Below are positions 1-7,351 of a stretch of 7,351 bases of DNA, one piece after another; the stretch's first letter is position 1, and each line of letters opens with the position of its first letter. The DNA is from JBHIER01 sp046760705 [NCBI: bacterium]. Its GTDB lineage: Bacteria > JBHIER01 > G020348925. The stretch covers positions 1 through 7,351 of the forward strand of contig JBHIER010000160.1 in NCBI GenBank assembly GCA_046760705.1, given 5' to 3'. The notes beneath the pieces were generated by a model. That model was not told the DNA's origin, ran no database searches, and saw nothing but the letters and a program-made list of their open reading frames with translations. The translations under genes were made by a program, and so were the position numbers.

Positions 1-171
1 TAAATTATTATTGACGGGCAGAGTTTGAAGGACAAGATCGAGTCAGGACCACTGAAGTTGGAACAAGCTCTGGACATTGCCATGCAGGTTGCGGAAGGTT
101 TGCAGGAGGCGCACGAGACCCGACTAAAACTAAAAAGTGATTATAAGCCTAGAGCGGAGAGTTTTTGTTGA
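1..171 (+). pseudogene. Ser/Thr protein kinase remnant (mid-domain fragment, cut at left edge)
   Basis: Reading from the first base, codons 2 onward give DGQSLKDKIESGPLKLEQAL then DIAMQVAEGLQEAHE, the hinge and helix-E part of a Hanks-type Ser/Thr kinase. The usual continuation KGIVHRDIK, with the catalytic loop, is absent. After AHE the frame runs into unrelated codons (TRLKLKSDY...) and stops at TGA 169-171. The first codon in this frame is TAA, so the fragment is broken upstream too, or the homology enters from another frame. It is clearly similar to the second kinase relic at 1751-2654 (shared DIAMQ..AE.LQE and SLKDK at DNA level), so the two are paralogous copies. No active kinase can come from this piece. 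The family assignment is confident; whether a longer kinase lies to the left cannot be seen. Confidence 0.75.
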
Positions 172-235: not shown

Positions 236-508
236 ATGGATTATAAACAGGAAATCATAAAGGAAATCGAGGGGATGCCTAAGGAGATGCTGCCACGAGT
301 GCACCGACTCGTTCATCTCCTTAACTACAAAAGAGAGAAGCTTGAAGAGGTCCTTCGAGAGGCTGAAAAGCTAAAGACGGAACGTGCCAACTGGACCGAT
401 GAACAGTACATAGATCGTCTTTTGCAAGTGCTTGAGGATCTCAGACAGGAGGCCATTGAGAAGGGGGTAGCCATTGAACGGGATGAGGAGGCCGCCATTG
501 GCAGCTAA
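236..508 (+). CDS. Small charged helical protein, putative antitoxin partner of the PIN protein
   Basis: This is a 90-residue, strongly charged, mainly helical protein. Residues 1-30 (IIKEIEGMPKEMLPRVHRLV) resemble the opening of DUF2281-like/VapB-type antitoxins, where a helix of the form I.E.LP.E.L..V is common. The middle (33-50) is a Lys/Glu helix and the C-terminal part (58-85) another amphipathic helix rich in Asp/Glu. No ribbon-helix-helix or AbrB DNA-binding domain is recognisable, so the antitoxin call rests on size, charge and position: its last 11 bases overlap the PIN gene, the usual order of antitoxin before toxin with translational coupling. In such pairs the first protein binds the nuclease and blocks its active site, often also repressing the operon. 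That role is inferred. The ATG is supported by a GAGGAG site. An unrelated small operon partner is the alternative. Confidence 0.6.
   Translation: MDYKQEIIKEIEGMPKEMLPRVHRLVHLLNYKREKLEEVLREAEKLKTERANWTDEQYIDRLLQVLEDLRQEAIEKGVAIERDEEAAIGS
485..491 (+). promoter_or_regulatory. Shine-Dalgarno site that decides the PIN gene start
   Basis: A perfect GAGGAGG sits inside the end of the antitoxin gene, six bases before TTG 498. It favours TTG 498 over the upstream in-frame candidates TTG 474 and ATG 483. TTG 474 has only a GGGGG run before it. Confidence 0.65.
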
Positions 509-1007
509 AAAAGTGTTAAGGGCTGTTTTTGACGCAAATATCTATATTGCCGCCGCACTCACCAAAAACCCCCAAAGTCCTACTCGTGAGCTCATTAAAA
601 TGTTAAAGAAACGAAAATTCCAACTGGTGTGGTGTAGACAAATCCGAGAAGAAGTTGCAGAAAAATTAGTTGAAAAAAGCCTCAGCACAGCCCGAATCGC
701 TGAATTTATCAATGCGGTAGATCGATGGGCTCAGTCCATTGATATCGATTCTACTGATATTATACCAGTTGTCATCGCTGATCCGGATGATGACGTGGTA
801 GTCGCCTGCGCGGTGAAGGGAAATGCAACTCATTTGGTCACCTACGATCCTCACTTTAATTTATTGGGTAGAACGTATCGGGGGATTAAGATCATTGATG
901 GTTTACATTTTCTTTATGTAGTGCGAGGAGATAAACCAAAGGACAAATCTTCCCAAAAACCTTCCTTGACTCGGTTGAAAAGGGAAGAGCGGAGAGCAAA
1001 GAGCTAA
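498..1007 (+). CDS. PIN-domain ribonuclease, putative toxin of a toxin-antitoxin pair
   Basis: A 169-residue protein of the PIN family annotated as putative toxin component (COG1569/TIGR00305 type). PIN toxins are Mg2+-dependent endoribonucleases that cut tRNA, rRNA or mRNA when freed from their antitoxin. Counting from TTG 498, the active-site acidic set is visible: D12 in AVFDAN, E52 in IREEVAEKL, D97-D99 in ADPDDDVVVACAV and D117 in VTYDPHF. The core ends with YRGIKIIDGLHFL, typical of this subgroup. A Lys/Arg/Ser-rich tail follows (about 149-169, including LTRLKREERRAKS) that is not part of the PIN fold and might aid RNA binding. The start is chosen because GAGGAGG lies six bases upstream and PIN proteins usually reach the first Asp within about 12 residues. 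An ATG at 483 or TTG at 474 would add 5 or 8 residues. The gene overlaps the putative antitoxin by 11 bp. The family is confident; the target RNA is unknown. Confidence 0.85.
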   Translation: MAAKKVLRAVFDANIYIAAALTKNPQSPTRELIKMLKKRKFQLVWCRQIREEVAEKLVEKSLSTARIAEFINAVDRWAQSIDIDSTDIIPVVIADPDDDVVVACAVKGNATHLVTYDPHFNLLGRTYRGIKIIDGLHFLYVVRGDKPKDKSSQKPSLTRLKREERRAKS

Positions 1008-2204: not shown

Positions 2205-2519
2205 GCGGGGCAAAGCCGCAATCGCACTTTGAGAATAAGTATATCAGATGATCAGGGTATCAGTGGGAAGAATATCAGGTGAGCGGATGAGACGAGCAGA
2301 GTATCAGTGGGAAGGGTACCAGTAGATCAGAATATCAGGACACCCCGATCGCTCTCTGGGTGCATAGGAACTGATATGCTGATAATCTGATATCCTGCCT
2401 ACTGGTCTGCTGATGTGCTGATATGCTTTGTAAAGTGAGCGGGTCAGACGATCAGAGTATCGGGACTGATATTCTGATTTGCTTTAATTTCTTGCCAAAA
2501 AAACAAAAATTTGATTGCC
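2205..2519. repeat. ATCAG/CTGAT octamer array inserted in the kinase relic
   Basis: The pentamer ATCAG occurs eight times and its complement CTGAT seven times between 2243 and 2478. In 236 bp, about 0.5 copies on both strands would be expected by chance. Copies are often exactly 8 bp apart: ATCAG at 2243, 2251, 2259; at 2326, 2334; CTGAT at 2371, 2379, 2387; at 2410, 2418; at 2466, 2474. The left half (to about 2340) carries only ATCAG and the right half mostly CTGAT. The arms pair around CACCC (2341-2345) and GGGTG (2358-2362), and 2318-2338 pairs with 2387-2406. GTATCAGTGGGAAG is repeated directly at 2257 and 2301, and 2280-2306 recurs at 2435-2461 (24 of 27). The array splits the kinase between NIL and the DFG segment. 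The edges carry similar 11-mers, CCAATATCCTA at 2194 and CCAATACCATA at 2518, though both may simply encode the expected kinase residues. There is no coding potential. Confidence 0.75.
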
Positions 2520-2715
2520 AATACCATAGTGACGACTGAGGCTCAGGCGAAGATCACGGATTTTGGCCTAGTCAAATTGGCTGGGCGAACGAAGCTCACC
2601 AGGACCGGCACGACCACAGGTACAGTTGTCTATATGTCGCCCGGAGAGCGCTGAAGTTTTTCACCGTTCGAAAGAATCTCACCGTCGTCACCTCGATTGG
2701 GCTGACGCAACCAAA

Positions 2716-2722
2716 AAGGAGG
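2716..2722 (+). promoter_or_regulatory. Strong Shine-Dalgarno site at the head of the three-gene operon
   Basis: AAGGAGG stands six bases before ATG 2729. The 74 bases between the last kinase codon and this ATG show no clear promoter hexamers. The operon promoter may lie in the AT-rich stretch around 2480-2520 at the end of the octamer array, which is a guess. Confidence 0.65.
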
Positions 2723-2728
2723 AGTTTC

Positions 2729-4102
2729 ATGACAGAAGAAATTCGATTGCCAGAAGCGGCGGTTAAAACCTTATCCAAGAAGTCTACCATTACCCTGGTA
2801 GCAGGGAAGGCGAGGGTTTTGTCAGGACAAGACCCAGATTTTGTCCGGGCCGACATCGGCGAAGTCTGTGTGCCCGGGCTCTTCCCGCCCGGCTATAAGG
2901 AGAGTCTGGAGAAATCAGCCGCGACAGTTTCAACCGAAGGAAGAATTGGCTACACGGTACCCGATGGCGACAACAGGCTTAAGAAGCTTATTTTCAAGCA
3001 CTCCATACCTGCTGACCTCCGGGCTGTGATTCTGAAGCAGCTTCGGGATGAGGCCAAGAAGCAGGGCATTGATGTCGAAAAATATGAAGAAGAGAACATA
3101 CAGAAGTACGTGGCCGTCACCCACGGCGGCACTGGCGCCCTGGGGGCTGCTCTCTCAATCTTCTTCACTGCCCAGCAAAAACTGGTCGTCGTCAATCAGA
3201 GAACCTGGCAAAACCACAACCTGATTGTGGATATGCACGGCGGCATGATCTGGCCGGTGCCATTGATTGACGAGCAGGGACAGGTGGCTAATCCAGATTC
3301 TGTTCTCAAGCTCTGCCATCCGGTTAAAGACAAAATCGCTTCTTTCCTTTTCACCATGATTAACAACCCTGACGGCGCCGTCATCACCGATCCGGCCGAA
3401 CAGGCTAAGCTGGAAACAATTCTCCAGGAGCTTAATGTCCCTTTGATCCTGGATGTGGCCTACCATGGGTTGGTCTTCGACGGAAAAGAAACCCAGCCCT
3501 TTTCGCCCGACATTCTTCGCAAAACGGTGGTTTGCGGCACCTATTCAAAGACCTTACAGATTCCTGGTGAACGTCTGGGGTATATCTCCTGTCCTGACCC
3601 GAGGGTGACCCGCTATGTCTACTTCTACAACCGTTCCCACAGCGGCTGCCCTTCCGTCACTCCCCAGCGAGCCTTAACCGCCCACTTCACTAAATTTGAA
3701 ACGGCTCCGGATGAGATAGGGACTTACAAGAGAGAACTTCTCACTGAAATGGAAACCAGGAGAAATATCCTGGTGAACAAGGTAAAAGAAAAACTGGGCT
3801 GGGAGATGAAACATCCTGGTGGCGCCATCTACGCTCTCATTCCTCTGCCTGTTGAGCTGGTGAAGGAGTACGGCGATGTCGACAGATTTACCCTTGACCT
3901 GGTTGACCAGGGACATGTCAGCGCCATTTCCGGAACCGTTTTTGAATTCCGCGTCCGTTCAACCAATAACGGCTACGAAGTTTACACTCCGGCCCCGACG
4001 AGTTCAGAAGTGTGTTACCTCCGCTTCTGCTACGGTTTTACTCCTACCGACCGGGTGGAATTGGCAGTTGAACATATCAAGAACTTTATTGCGAATCGCT
4101 GA
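2729..4102 (+). CDS. PLP-dependent aminotransferase, class I/II (fold type I)
   Basis: A 457-residue cytoplasmic aminotransferase that would move an amino group between an amino acid and a 2-oxo acid using pyridoxal phosphate. The family signature is complete: THGGTGALGAAL near 131-142 (phosphate-binding turn), NNPDGA with N213, DVAYHGLVFD with D242 and Y245, the Schiff-base Lys K274 in GTYSKTLQIPGERLGYI with R282 contacting phosphate, and R432 in YLRFCYG, the position that usually binds the substrate carboxylate. It is longer than a typical aspartate aminotransferase (about 400), with an extended N-terminus and an insertion around 95-125 (LRDEAKKQGIDVEKYEEENI). The start is fixed by AAGGAGG. 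It heads an operon with an M20 hydrolase and a glutamine-synthetase-like ligase, so its substrate may be what those two act on. Class is certain; the substrate is not readable. The sequence is not close to SerC, whose gene lies nearby on the other strand. Confidence 0.9.
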   Translation: MTEEIRLPEAAVKTLSKKSTITLVAGKARVLSGQDPDFVRADIGEVCVPGLFPPGYKESLEKSAATVSTEGRIGYTVPDGDNRLKKLIFKHSIPADLRAVILKQLRDEAKKQGIDVEKYEEENIQKYVAVTHGGTGALGAALSIFFTAQQKLVVVNQRTWQNHNLIVDMHGGMIWPVPLIDEQGQVANPDSVLKLCHPVKDKIASFLFTMINNPDGAVITDPAEQAKLETILQELNVPLILDVAYHGLVFDGKETQPFSPDILRKTVVCGTYSKTLQIPGERLGYISCPDPRVTRYVYFYNRSHSGCPSVTPQRALTAHFTKFETAPDEIGTYKRELLTEMETRRNILVNKVKEKLGWEMKHPGGAIYALIPLPVELVKEYGDVDRFTLDLVDQGHVSAISGTVFEFRVRSTNNGYEVYTPAPTSSEVCYLRFCYGFTPTDRVELAVEHIKNFIANR

Positions 4103-4108
4103 GGGGGG
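4101..4108 (+). promoter_or_regulatory. Shine-Dalgarno site that decides the M20 gene start
   Basis: GAGGGGGG overlaps the last bases of the aminotransferase stop. It is directly adjacent to GTG 4108, too close to serve it, and eight bases from GTG 4117, a normal spacing. GTG 4117 is therefore taken as the start. Overlap with the upstream stop suggests coupled translation. Confidence 0.6.
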
Positions 4109-4116
4109 TGATACCC

Positions 4117-5235
4117 GTGGAAGTGAACAGAAATAGACTCATCCACTGGCTTCGAGAGCTTATTCGCGTTCCCAGCGTCACCGGCGACGAAGAAGCCATT
4201 GCTGGCTATGTCAGCCAGGAACTCTCCAAAATGGGCTACCAGCCTCAAGTTAAAGAGAACAATGTCTTCTTTGAAGTGGGTGATGGCTCAAAGTCGCTCC
4301 TCCTCAATGCCCATCTGGACACCGTTGATGTGGGCAGCCAGTGGCAGCACGACCCTTTTGGGGCTCTTATGGAAGAGGGGAAAATTTTCGGCCGAGGGGC
4401 GAGCGACGACAAAGGCAATATCGCTGCTATGCTGGAGGTCGCTCGCCTCGCTGGAAATGCCCAAATCAATGGCCGCCTCATTTTTACCTTTACGACAGGA
4501 GAGGAGTTCGGAGCCGAACTCGAGGCAAAAGGGAGTTACCTTCTCTCACAGTGGCTAAAGGCTGAGAAAGCCTTGGTGCTGGAGCCGCAGACGGAGGTCG
4601 ATGAGAAAAGGGTGAACGTTATTTACGGCTGTCGCGGGATTGAAAATATCCTGGTTCGCATCAAAGGGAAAGCCTCCCACACTGGCTACCCCGAGCGAGG
4701 CGTAAACGCCATTTCTAAAGCCGTTCAGCTATTGACCAGAATGGAAGATCTTGACTTCCACAAAGTTGTGGTTTCTGGAGAGGAGATTGAAACCATCTGC
4801 ATGCCCATTCGCATCAGTGGTGGAGCCGATATTTTCCGAGTGCCTGACAAGTGCGAGACAATGATTCACTGCCGCACCGCCCCGGAAGACGCTAAAATTG
4901 TTAAGCAGGTGGAGCTTGTGTGTCAGGAAGTTTGCGGTGAAAATTTCGAGATGGAAAATACATACAGCGCCCCAGGTTATATTGAAGACCCTAAAGATAA
5001 ACTGGTGGACATTATCCGCCAGCAGGCTCAGCGGCTCAACTACACCACTGTAAACAGGTTTGCCGGTGGCCGCATCGACGCCTCTATCTTTAAAACGGTG
5101 GGCAATATTCCCTCTTTCTGCACGGGCGTAGGCAACCGTGATCAAATGCACTTGGTGGACGAATACATTTCCGTGGCAGATTTCATCGCGTGTTCAGAAA
5201 TGATCAAGAATGTTGTCTTCGCTTACTTGAGTTAA
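4117..5235 (+). CDS. M20-family zinc metallopeptidase / deacylase (ArgE/DapE/LysK-like)
   Basis: A 372-residue cytoplasmic hydrolase of the M20 family, which cuts an amide bond next to a free carboxylate in acyl-amino acids or short peptides using two zinc ions. Counted from GTG 4117, all expected ligands are present: H66 and D68 in NAHLDTV, bridging D97 in GRGASDDKG, the catalytic base E129 with ligand E130 in TTGEEFG, E156 in VLEPQ and H345 in DQMHLVDE. H188 in GKASHTGYPERGVNA is the lid-domain His that completes the active site across the dimer. Length is typical. It starts 14 bp after the aminotransferase and ends 17 bp before the ligase gene, so all three are very likely co-transcribed. 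Possible jobs are removing a gamma-glutamyl or other acyl group from a product of the neighbouring ligase, as LysK or ArgE do in protected pathways, or degrading a dipeptide. The family is certain, the substrate unknown. An in-frame GTG at 4108 would add three residues. Confidence 0.9.
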   Translation: MEVNRNRLIHWLRELIRVPSVTGDEEAIAGYVSQELSKMGYQPQVKENNVFFEVGDGSKSLLLNAHLDTVDVGSQWQHDPFGALMEEGKIFGRGASDDKGNIAAMLEVARLAGNAQINGRLIFTFTTGEEFGAELEAKGSYLLSQWLKAEKALVLEPQTEVDEKRVNVIYGCRGIENILVRIKGKASHTGYPERGVNAISKAVQLLTRMEDLDFHKVVVSGEEIETICMPIRISGGADIFRVPDKCETMIHCRTAPEDAKIVKQVELVCQEVCGENFEMENTYSAPGYIEDPKDKLVDIIRQQAQRLNYTTVNRFAGGRIDASIFKTVGNIPSFCTGVGNRDQMHLVDEYISVADFIACSEMIKNVVFAYLS

Positions 5236-5240
5236 CAAAA

Positions 5241-5247
5241 GAGGAGG
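5241..5247 (+). promoter_or_regulatory. Shine-Dalgarno site of the glutamine-synthetase-like gene
   Basis: GAGGAGG lies five bases before ATG 5253 and fixes that start. An in-frame ATG at 5190, inside the M20 gene, lacks such a site and would add 21 residues with no family match. Confidence 0.7.
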
Positions 5248-5252
5248 AAAGG

Positions 5253-6677
5253 ATGTTTAAGGATACCGATGAAGCATTACGATATATTAGAGATAGAAAG
5301 ATTGTAATGCTTGATCTAAAAACAGCCGACCTGATCGGCCGCTGGCGCCACATGGTCTACAAAAGTGGGCACGACGACGAAAAAATTTTCCTCGAGGGGA
5401 CAGGGACCAGCCTCACCTCGTATCCCGGTTTTAAGACCATGGAATGCGGTGACATGATTATTAAGCCGGACCCAGCCACCGGCTTTCTTGATCCCTTTGC
5501 TGAGTTGCCCACTCTCTGCTTTATCTGCGACATCCACAACAATGACGGCACTCCTTTTGAGCTTGACCCCCGCTATGTGGCCAAAAAAGCGGAAAAATAT
5601 CTGGCCAAGACCAATCTCGGCGGCTTCAGCCTCTGGGGTCCAGAGATCGAATTCTATCTCTTCGATGAAGTCCGATACGGCACAGAGGTCCAGGGAGCCC
5701 ATTACGGGGTTAACTCTTCGGAATCTTACTGGAACGCCGGGCAAGAAAGAAGCAAGGGCTACAACCTGCCTTATACCAAGGGATCTCAGGCCGACCAGCC
5801 CCGCGACCAGTTCTGCAATCTGCGCAGCCGCATCGTTCAATATTTGGAAGAAGTCGGGATTCCGGTCAAATACCACCACCACGAGTCCGGGTCCCCGGGC
5901 CAGATGGAGATCGAGACATATTTTACTCCTCTCGTTCAGACCGGAGATAATATTTTCAAGCTGAAATACATCATCAAGAATGCAGCCGTAAAATTTGGCA
6001 AAACCGCGACCTTTATGCCCATGCCTCTCTTTTCCGAATCGACCAACGGCCTGCATTACCACCAGTACATTACTGATGGGAGGAAGTCTCTTTTTTACGA
6101 CCCTAAAGGTTACGGCGGGCTGAACAAAAACGGCCTGGCATACATTGGCGGCATCCTCGCCCATGTGCAGGCGGTTATTTCTCTGACGAATGGCAGCACC
6201 AATTCCTACCGGCGCCTGGGTGGTTATCGGGCCGCGCCGAACTATATCTTTTTCTCAGTAGCCAACCGGACTGCCGCCATCCGGATTCCGGCTTACGCCA
6301 TCAATGAAAAAGAGGCCCGGGTTGAGTTCCGCATGCCCGATGCCACCGGCAATCCTTACCTCTCTCTGGTAGCCATGCTCATGGCGGGATTAGACGGGAT
6401 CGAGAAGGGGATCGATCCCACCGAGGCAGGGTTTGGACCCTTTGAGGAAAATTTCAATGTGCAGGACGTGATTGATAAACATGAATTGCCCAAAGCGCCC
6501 AGCACATTTCAAGAGGCTTTAGTTGCCCTCGAAAAGGACCATGATTTCTTAACTAAGGAGGCTGTCTTTCCGCAGGAGTTGATCAAAGCCTGGATTAAGG
6601 TAAAGGAGACGCTGGAAATTGCCCCGCTTCAGAAACGGCCTCACCCCTACGAATACGACCTCTACTACGATTTATAG
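5253..6677 (+). CDS. Glutamine-synthetase-like ligase, probably gamma-glutamyl-amine type
   Basis: A 474-residue type I glutamine synthetase fold protein, normal length, ending in HPYEYDLYYDL as GSI proteins do. True GS joins ammonia to glutamate with ATP. Metal ligands are kept: E131 and E133 in GPEIEFYLFD, E211 and E219 in HHHESGSPGQMEIE, H268 in NGLHYH and E358 in VEFRMPD. The ATP/phosphate and glutamate arginines R321, R339, R344 and R360 are kept too. The ammonium pocket is not: enterobacterial D50 aligns with S53, Y179 with Q179 in KGSQAD (normally KGGYFP), and catalytic E327 with A327 in RLGGYRAAP (normally PGYEAP). The adenylylation motif NLYDL is also missing. These changes recall PuuA, GlnA3/GlnA4 or gamma-glutamyl-methylamide synthetases, which use amines larger than ammonia. 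It is the last gene of an operon with an aminotransferase and an M20 hydrolase. Family certain; the loss of ammonia specificity is inferred from a manual alignment. Confidence 0.88.
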   Translation: MFKDTDEALRYIRDRKIVMLDLKTADLIGRWRHMVYKSGHDDEKIFLEGTGTSLTSYPGFKTMECGDMIIKPDPATGFLDPFAELPTLCFICDIHNNDGTPFELDPRYVAKKAEKYLAKTNLGGFSLWGPEIEFYLFDEVRYGTEVQGAHYGVNSSESYWNAGQERSKGYNLPYTKGSQADQPRDQFCNLRSRIVQYLEEVGIPVKYHHHESGSPGQMEIETYFTPLVQTGDNIFKLKYIIKNAAVKFGKTATFMPMPLFSESTNGLHYHQYITDGRKSLFYDPKGYGGLNKNGLAYIGGILAHVQAVISLTNGSTNSYRRLGGYRAAPNYIFFSVANRTAAIRIPAYAINEKEARVEFRMPDATGNPYLSLVAMLMAGLDGIEKGIDPTEAGFGPFEENFNVQDVIDKHELPKAPSTFQEALVALEKDHDFLTKEAVFPQELIKAWIKVKETLEIAPLQKRPHPYEYDLYYDL

Positions 6678-6694
6678 AGAGTTACCGGCGGAAA

Positions 6695-6874
6695 TTACAG
6701 CAGATTTGAACCCGAATTATGCACAAACCCCGTAGTGTAAATATGCTTTGTTTTAGCCATTTGCTCCTCTGCTTTTGATATACTCCAACCATTCAAAAGG
6801 TAAAGATTCACATCCCCATGGGTCATGATCTTTTGACCGATGCTTTCACCCCGGCATCTTTTGAGAATATTCAT
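6695..6874 (-). CDS. Doubtful 59-residue open frame, no known family
   Basis: A minus-strand frame from ATG (6874) to TAA (6695) encodes a 59-residue protein with a plausible mixed composition (GQKIMTHGDVNLYLLNGW then SISKAEEQMAKTKHIYTTGF). No ribosome site precedes the ATG, and no family is recognised. The string LLNGWSISKAEEQMAKTKHIY weakly recalls the end of a tyrosine recombinase but lacks the Gly-His and the Tyr context, so that reading is not claimed. It may be a gene relic or chance. Confidence 0.2.
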   Translation of the reverse strand: MNILKRCRGESIGQKIMTHGDVNLYLLNGWSISKAEEQMAKTKHIYTTGFVHNSGSNLL

Positions 6875-7021
6875 TCACTTGTTTATCCACGAAGATCAAA
6901 CGATAACCACAACTCCCAAAGGATATTCCCCAGAGTTTTCTATATTATTACATCGTAAAAGTTTGCTTTTTTAGCCAGCTTTTTTCATGTGCCGCCATTG
7001 CCATTGCCAGGAGAAGCCCGG

Positions 7022-7142
7022 GGTGAGGGTGACGGTGACGGTCACGAAGCCCGCCCTGTTAGAAAGGGATCTTCTGAAGGGCTCCACCTTATTGAAATGG
7101 ACATTTCTAACAGGGCCCGTATCGGTTACGGTACATGGTGAC
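7022..7142. repeat. Inverted repeat with flanking GGTGAC-like hexamers
   Basis: GCCCTGTTAGAAA (7053-7065) and TTTCTAACAGGGC (7104-7116) are perfect 13-bp inverted copies separated by 38 bp. Next to the right arm, GAAATG and CATTTC form a further 6-bp hairpin (7094-7107). Hexamers of the form GGTNAC flank the structure: GGTGAG, GGTGAC, GGTGAC, GGTCAC in tandem at 7022-7045, and GGTTAC, GGTACA, GGTGAC at 7124-7142. The outer sequences are also loosely complementary. A dispersed palindromic element or a hairpin closing both convergent transcripts fits the position; there is no T-run for intrinsic termination. Confidence 0.6.
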
Positions 7143-7164
7143 GGAGCTGAGGCTTCTTTTCCTA

Positions 7165-7351
7165 TCAACCATTCTTCCTGACAAATTCGACCATGAAATC
7201 CGTCAAGGCTTTGATACCTTCTAACGACATGGCGTTGTACATGGACACTCGAACCCCCCCGACCGACCGGTGTCCCTTCAAGCCAGCAAACCCAGAACTC
7301 ATCGCCTCAGAGACAAACTTTGTTTCCAACTCCTCGCTGGGACGCCGAAAC
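7165..7351 (-). CDS. serC: Phosphoserine aminotransferase, C-terminal 61 residues (cut at right edge)
   Basis: The minus strand encodes the end of SerC, the PLP enzyme that converts 3-phosphohydroxypyruvate and glutamate to phosphoserine and 2-oxoglutarate, the second step of serine synthesis (and a step of vitamin B6 synthesis in some bacteria). The visible part begins FRRPSEELETKFVSEAM and continues AGLKGHRSVGGVRVSMYNAM, with the His/Arg pair and second Arg that bind the substrate phosphate. It ends SLEGIKALTDFMVEFVRKNG, very close to the end of enterobacterial SerC. A run of seven G in the gene is in frame, so nothing is broken. The stop is TGA (7167-7165). The N-terminal part with the PLP lysine lies beyond the window. 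The gene converges on the ligase operon, so joint regulation is not implied. Confidence 0.92.
   Translation of the reverse strand, partial: FRRPSEELETKFVSEAMSSGFAGLKGHRSVGGVRVSMYNAMSLEGIKALTDFMVEFVRKNG

What the first reader, a model, noticed from the sequence alone, without database searches (positions are those of the whole stretch)
5253..6677. Glutamine-synthetase fold with the ammonium pocket rebuilt (D50 to S, Y179 to Q, E327 to A)
Metal, ATP and glutamate residues are all in place, but the three side chains that hold and deprotonate ammonium in canonical GSI are replaced. Residues 179, 321, 339 and 344 even keep the enterobacterial numbers, which makes the alignment there easy to trust; the D50 equivalent needs a 3-residue offset. 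The adenylylation Tyr motif is also gone. The enzyme probably ligates glutamate to an amine that is not ammonia, or a different acid to an amine. The KGSQAD and GGYRAAP replacement motifs could define a subgroup.
Basis: partly seen in the sequence, partly recalled or inferred. Interest (0 to 1): 0.62.

Follow-up and report, generated by a model that had tools for sequence, protein, structure and literature searches.

The report
Glutamine synthetase that lost its ammonium pocket
A bacterial enzyme that looks like ordinary glutamine synthetase keeps its ATP- and metal-handling parts but has lost the side chains that hold ammonium, so it probably attaches glutamate to some other amine, next to two partner genes found beside it in each copy seen.

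Summary
The 474-aa ORF at 5253-6677 has the type I glutamine synthetase (GSI) fold. Against 63 GlnA-type sequences, D50 is S53, E327 is A327 (R326 beside it), and Y179 is S178, not Q179. G265 is also replaced (T264), and N264 is S263. Ten checked metal, phosphoryl and glutamate residues are intact. Of 65 near-invariant columns 11 changed, 7 in four active-site loops (Fisher p 0.003).

Three copies were found: the window and two Candidatus Aminicenantes MAGs (2 of 142 class genomes). The replaced residues are identical in all three; dN/dS is about 0.03. Each copy lies in an aminotransferase-M20 hydrolase-GS operon, in different surroundings. The tree places it inside GSI-beta, sister to an Acidobacteriota clade that keeps D50, Y179 and E327. 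Grouping it with seven PuuA/GlnT-type references is rejected (AU p 0.0003), so the loss looks independent of those.

Best reading: an ATP-dependent gamma-glutamyl ligase for an amine other than ammonia, possibly an amino acid processed by the neighbours. The substrate is unknown and no activity could be tested. New variant of a known kind.

The parts
2729..4102 (+). Class I/II aminotransferase, 457 aa, first gene of the operon
   Evidence: Pfam Aminotran_1_2 97.3 bits; 82 and 80% identical to L001 and L002 copies; SK motif with K274 and LRFCY motif present (their roles are recalled)
4108..5235 (+). M20 metallohydrolase of ArgE/DapE type, 375 aa, GTG start, second gene
   Evidence: Pfam Peptidase_M20 90.1 bits; DapE-ArgE TIGR01910 190.1 bits, under its 217.6 cut-off; metal-site motifs HLD, DDKG, EE, LEP, MH present (roles recalled); 77 and 76% identical to L001 and L002
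5253..6677 (+). Glutamine synthetase homologue with replaced ammonium pocket, 474 aa, third gene
5409..5411 (+). S53, at the place of Asp50
5784..5786 (+). S178, at the place of Tyr179
6042..6044 (+). T264, at the place of Gly265
6228..6233 (+). R326-A327; A327 at the place of the flap Glu327

Best explanation
It is an ATP-dependent gamma-glutamyl ligase, evolved from within GSI-beta, whose normal acceptor is no longer ammonium. Shown by sequence: the residues that bind metal and ATP and make gamma-glutamyl phosphate are intact, while the side chains that bind and deprotonate ammonium (Asp50', Tyr179) and the flap base (Glu327) are gone in all three copies, together with an invariant Gly of the glutamate loop. 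Inferred: glutamate is phosphorylated as in GS; another amine enters the less negative pocket and attacks the acyl phosphate; Glu219 (the place of the catalytic Glu186 of GmaS) or Glu211 takes the proton. Inferred with less certainty: since the gene stands third behind an aminotransferase and an ArgE/DapE-like M20 hydrolase in each copy found, the three form a protect-transform-deprotect route (glutamylate the amine, transaminate the product, cut the glutamyl amide). The loss of two acidic groups and the presence of Arg326 would suit an acceptor with a carboxylate (an amino acid) better than a polyamine. Odds: non-ammonium acceptor about 0.65; amino-acid acceptor with this three-step route about 0.3.
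For: D50, Y179, G265 and E327 replaced in 3 of 3 copies while 10 of 10 catalytic residues are kept. GS dN/dS 0.025 and 0.035 against the window. GSI fold (Z 43.5 to 7w85). Nested in GSI-beta beside a clade that keeps the pocket in 22 of 22 loci read. Same three-gene order in 3 of 3 copies with different surroundings. G001 also has an ordinary GS, L003, with D50 and E327. GmaS and NpaA1 lost the same two acids (passages). T264 recurs in a haloarchaeal protein annotated gamma-glutamylputrescine synthetase.
Against: No activity data. G002 shows no second GS (1 PF00120 match), so there this could be the only one, or the MAG is incomplete. L001 and L002 pass the GlnA equivalog cut-off. G024 has the aminotransferase and M20 without this GS. 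The GmaS base Asp177 is not here: its place is His209, as in ordinary GS. The pocket loops are of low confidence in the model.
Confidence: 0.6

Rival explanations
1. It is still an ammonia-using glutamine synthetase, slow or with a shifted mechanism, in which other residues (Glu211, Glu219, His209) bind and deprotonate ammonium.
For: Best NCBIfam model is GlnA, 425.2 bits for the window and 433.4 and 433.2 for L001 and L002 against a cut-off of 429.15; G002 has no other PF00120 match; GmaS without Asp50' still turns over ammonium, with a high Km (passages).
Against: Asp50, Tyr179 and Glu327 are invariant in the GlnA-type rows (63, 34 and 63 rows with a residue) and lost together here; G001 has an ordinary GS as well.
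Confidence: 0.17
2. The acid has changed too: it ligates an acid other than glutamate to an amine or to ammonia, helped by the changed Asn264 loop (S263, T264).
For: G265, kept in 63 of 63 GlnA-type rows, is Thr, and N264 is Ser.
Against: R321, R339, R359 and H269 are kept; the same Thr occurs in a haloarchaeal protein annotated gamma-glutamylputrescine synthetase, a group of which one member was shown to use glutamate (PMC8394153, passages).
Confidence: 0.15
3. It is a catalytically dead GS homologue kept for a structural or regulatory role.
For: Loss of residues used in GS catalysis; non-enzymatic GS homologues are known (recalled).
Against: 10 of 10 catalytic residues kept, very low dN/dS, and it is more conserved than its two enzyme neighbours.
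Confidence: 0.07

Closest known systems
Type I glutamine synthetase, beta group (GlnA, TIGR00653), and its Acidobacteriota clade L037-L058
   Same: Fold, length, catalytic residues, and place in the tree; 44-48% identity to the clade
   Different: Asp50, Tyr179, Gly265 and Glu327 replaced; an operon with aminotransferase and M20, not seen around the 16 clade regions fetched
GmaS, gamma-glutamylmethylamide synthetase (type III GS, 7cql)
   Same: Asp50' and flap Glu lost (PMC7948447, passages); Glu179 and Glu186 correspond to Glu211 and Glu219
   Different: Separate branch: a close relative of GmaS (Aminobacter GlnT, 624.9 bits to 7cql) lies outside GSI in the tree; GmaS base Asp177 is His209 here
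GoaS group (NpaA1, PuuA and others) and the puu cluster
   Same: Ammonium-site acids lost (PMC11335346, passages; PuuA row); in E. coli the ligase also stands with a glutamyl-amide hydrolase and amine-transforming enzymes
   Different: Holding the variant in one clade with PuuA and six other references is rejected (AU p 0.0003); the hydrolase is M20, not PuuD type. NpaA1 itself was not in the tree
GlnA2 and GlnA3 of Streptomyces coelicolor
   Same: Replacements in the ammonium site: GlnA3 has Ala169 and Thr327 for Tyr179 and Glu327 (PMC8998196, passages)
   Different: GlnA2 gained acids (Glu55, Asp150) where this enzyme has neutral residues; their sequences were not compared here

Membership tests
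Type I glutamine synthetase (GlnA, glutamate-ammonia ligase) | GSI fold over the whole length | tested here: met
   AF2 model, pLDDT 71, pTM 0.80; 7w85 Z 43.5, rmsd 3.0 over 422 residues; 3ng0 Foldseek E 2.5e-39
Type I glutamine synthetase (GlnA, glutamate-ammonia ligase) | NCBIfam TIGR00653 cut-off of 429.15 bits | tested here: inconclusive
   Window 425.2, L001 433.4 and L002 433.2; sister-clade proteins 503.6-536.1 (3 tested)
Type I glutamine synthetase (GlnA, glutamate-ammonia ligase) | Ammonium site: Asp50, Tyr179 (beta type), Glu327 | tested here: not met
   Ser, Ser, Ala in 3 of 3 copies
Type I glutamine synthetase (GlnA, glutamate-ammonia ligase) | Place within the GSI-beta tree | tested here: met
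   19 rows with the Acidobacteriota clade, support 100/99
Type I glutamine synthetase (GlnA, glutamate-ammonia ligase) | Makes glutamine from ammonium | not testable with these tools
   Needs an assay
GoaS/PuuA/GmaS-type gamma-glutamyl amine ligases | Asp50' and flap Glu lost | tested here: met
   S53 and A327; feature as described in passages
GoaS/PuuA/GmaS-type gamma-glutamyl amine ligases | Same branch of the tree | tested here: not met
   One clade with 7 references rejected, AU p 0.0003; long branches among the references; NpaA1 and GlnA3 themselves not included
GmaS / type III (TIGR03105) | Profile cut-off 469.6 bits | tested here: not met
   169.1 bits
GmaS / type III (TIGR03105) | Catalytic Asp177 | tested here: not met
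   His209 at that place
Gamma-glutamylputrescine synthetase (NF045547) | Profile cut-off 650 bits | tested here: not met
   192.5 bits

The most novel reading that the evidence does not exclude
A separate origin, inside GSI-beta, of gamma-glutamyl-amine ligase chemistry, tied to an undescribed three-enzyme route (aminotransferase, M20 deacylase, GS) in which glutamate serves as a removable protecting group on an amino acid, in logic like the succinyl, acetyl or LysW groups of lysine and arginine synthesis (comparison recalled).
Probability: 0.3. Interest if true: 0.65.

Novelty: new variant of a known kind. Interest (0 to 1): 0.44.

Why it matters
Two of the three copies pass NCBI's GlnA equivalog cut-off, so automatic annotation would be expected to call them glutamate-ammonia ligase although they lack the ammonium site. 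The case suggests that the pocket can be lost inside the GlnA lineage proper, not only on the known amine-ligase branches, and gives simple diagnostic positions (50, 179, 265, 327). If the operon reading is right, it would point to a glutamyl-protected route in the poorly known Aminicenantes.

Tried and rejected
AF2 on the three close copies alone failed (pLDDT 30). The second model, with 8 rows, is good for the fold only: residues 139-182, 256-265 and 322-341 have pLDDT under 50, so the Tyr179, Asn264 and flap loops rest on sequence alignment. A scan of viral contigs with the three copies found no relative; a wider query found 5 GS loci. Rfam found nothing in the window at its gathering scores. 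Promoter- and terminator-like sites in 2500-7351 were not clearly above shuffles. That the sister clade has the same operon was considered and rejected: in 16 regions (some cut by contig ends) no M20 homologue reached E 1e-5, and 2 had an aminotransferase next to the GS, about 23% identical to the operon's. The first tree joined L006 and L015 to the wider group on a branch of length 3.98; without them the placement held with better support. Left out: 27 near-duplicate loci from both trees, L006 and L015 from the second, 10 non-GlnA rows from the near-invariant count.

Limits: distribution was searched only among relatives of G001 (2 of 60; 2 of 142 of the class; G001 alone of a 396-genome phylum sample) and by exact-peptide seeds in genome contigs (2 loci), which reach close relatives only. 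Of the matches the 29 best loci besides G001's own were read at the pocket positions; losses among the rest are not excluded.

Print: the searches listed no paper whose title or abstract start describes this operon or a GSI-beta with these losses. I read passages of PMC8998196, PMC11335346, PMC7948447, PMC10799026 and PMC8394153, and saw the other papers as listings only.

Full report
What is there. The window carries a three-gene unit on the plus strand: a class I/II aminotransferase (2729-4102), an M20 metallohydrolase (4108-5235, GTG start) and a glutamine synthetase homologue (5253-6677, 474 aa). The gaps are 5 and 17 nt, with GGAGG sites before the first and third gene. No whole genome is held for the window, so its organism is inferred from its relatives only.

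Who else has it. A scan of genome contigs found two relatives, L001 and L002, 88 and 87% identical in the GS, both in MAGs titled Candidatus Aminicenantes. Both have the three genes in the same order, with gaps of 5-6 and 14-15 nt. Outside them the surroundings differ: acyl-CoA and POR-type genes in L001, a sulfatase upstream and a methyltransferase further downstream in L002, a PIN-domain ORF, kinase fragments and an end that I read as serC (a recalled label, not checked against a family library) in the window. The GS variant is in 2 of 60 relatives of G001, 2 of 142 genomes of the class, and G001 alone of a phylum sample of 396. The aminotransferase and M20 are each in 3 of 142 class genomes, the third being G024. 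There the contig ends 96 nt after the M20 stop, inside a high-copy repeat, and no variant GS was found in that genome.

The residues. A 76-row alignment with E. coli GlnA gives D50 to S53, Y179 to S178, N264 to S263, G265 to T264, and E327 to A327 with R326 before it. Of 65 columns at least 97% one residue in 63 GlnA-type rows, 11 differ in all three copies: 21, 49, 50, 52, 179, 258, 265, 291, 325, 327 and 340 (column 179 let in by hand, with 34 rows). The window differs at 12 of the 65, and the most deviant other GlnA-type row at 4. Seven of the 11 fall in four active-site loops holding 16 of the 65 columns (one-sided Fisher p 0.003). For the five-residue ammonium site (50, 53, 179, 212, 327) it is 3 of 5 against 8 of 60 (p 0.03). 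E129, E131, E212, E220, H269, R321, R339, R344, E357 and R359 are kept.

Is it maintained. dN/dS of the GS gene is 0.025 and 0.035 against the window; the aminotransferase gives 0.060-0.087 and M20 0.049-0.111. Synonymous sites are near saturation, and the L001-L002 GS pair gives no usable ratio. The GS is the most conserved of the three, so the altered pocket is maintained, not decaying.

Where it comes from. A 47-row maximum-likelihood tree puts the three copies beside an Acidobacteriota clade (19 rows together, support 100/99) within GSI-beta. Holding them together with seven PuuA-, GlnT- and other GS-like references is rejected (AU p 0.0003). The sister clade keeps D50, Y179 and E327 in 22 of 22 loci read (L037-L058). 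PF00120 searches of 16 of its genomes gave one to three matches each. The seven references have long branches, so their own order is unsure; the Aminobacter row stands for GmaS (624.9 bits to 7cql), while NpaA1 and GlnA3 themselves were not in the tree. The AF2 model (8 rows, pLDDT 71, pTM 0.80) matches GSI structures best (7w85, Z 43.5; 3ng0, Foldseek E 2.5e-39), with low confidence in three pocket loops.

How it most likely works. GmaS has Ala48' for Asp50' and Trp300 for the flap Glu, uses Asp177 and Glu186 as bases, and still takes ammonium at a much higher Km than methylamine (PMC7948447, passages). By the alignment printed and the rows, its Glu179 and Glu186 correspond to Glu211 and Glu219 here, and its Asp177 to His209. 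NpaA1, which acts on 1-naphthylamine and aniline, also lost the flap Glu and Asp50' (PMC11335346, passages). GlnA3 has Ala169 and Thr327 for Tyr179 and Glu327; GlnA2 has Glu55 and Asp150 (PMC8998196, passages). I infer gamma-glutamyl phosphate formation as in GS, attack by an organic amine, and Glu219 or Glu211 as base. GlnA2, a polyamine enzyme, gained acids; this one lost two and has Arg326. With an aminotransferase that keeps the LRFCY arginine (role recalled) and an ArgE/DapE-like hydrolase, an amino-acid acceptor is my favourite, at about 0.3.

Against this reading. G002 shows no second GS, while G001 has an ordinary one (L003, 471.7 bits to TIGR00653) and a distant paralogue, L006. G024 has two of the three genes without this GS. 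The best NCBIfam model is GlnA, and L001 and L002 pass its cut-off while the window misses it by 4 bits. Nothing here measures activity.

Verdict. The finding is real and mostly well read. Y179 was misplaced by one residue, the glutamate loop is changed as well, and the lost adenylylation Tyr is not specific to it. It is a new variant of a known kind: a GSI-beta protein that lost the ammonium site apart from the amine ligases compared here, in a small operon of unknown pathway.

Noticed in passing
L134:8130-8225 (G024:C223), also L138-L141: A roughly 96-nt dispersed repeat follows the M20 stop codon in G024; the search scored 40 matches in G024 (of 98 candidates), 40 in G002 (of 65) and 1 in G001. 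Copies also lie in L011 and L031, none in the window. By eye the ends carry inverted CCTGRATTATTCA-like sequences, like a small transposon remnant.
   Followed up: partly
L134:5622-8129: In G024 the aminotransferase (79%) and M20 (78%) stand together without the GS next to them or elsewhere in the genome held; the contig ends there.
   Followed up: partly
window 236-1007: A small ORF (DUF5788 19.5 bits, below cut-off) followed by a PIN_3 ORF (70.5 bits; TIGR00305 35.9 bits, above its cut-off): a toxin-antitoxin-like pair.
   Followed up: no
window 1-130, 1866-2282, about 2520-2655, and 1022-1515: Pieces of a Ser/Thr protein kinase (Pkinase 34.9 bits for 1866-2279; a 46-nt direct repeat links 73-118 and 2118-2163; the rest by eye) and a shortened nitroreductase ORF: decayed genes upstream of the operon.
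   Followed up: no
L073:5729-8517 and L074:5934-8928: In 2 of 16 sister-clade regions a class I aminotransferase lies next to the pocket-intact GS on the same strand; both score under the cut-offs of the NCBIfam aspartate aminotransferase and GntC models.
   Followed up: partly
window 2729-4102: The operon's aminotransferase is itself a far-off family: no match at E 1e-40 in the 296 other genomes of a phylum sample, and 21.7-29.0% identity in the 15 of 192 plasmid records listed.
   Followed up: partly
window about 7045-7125: A 13-nt inverted repeat (GCCCTGTTAGAAA and its complement) between the GS and the minus-strand ORF at the window end, seen by eye.
   Followed up: no
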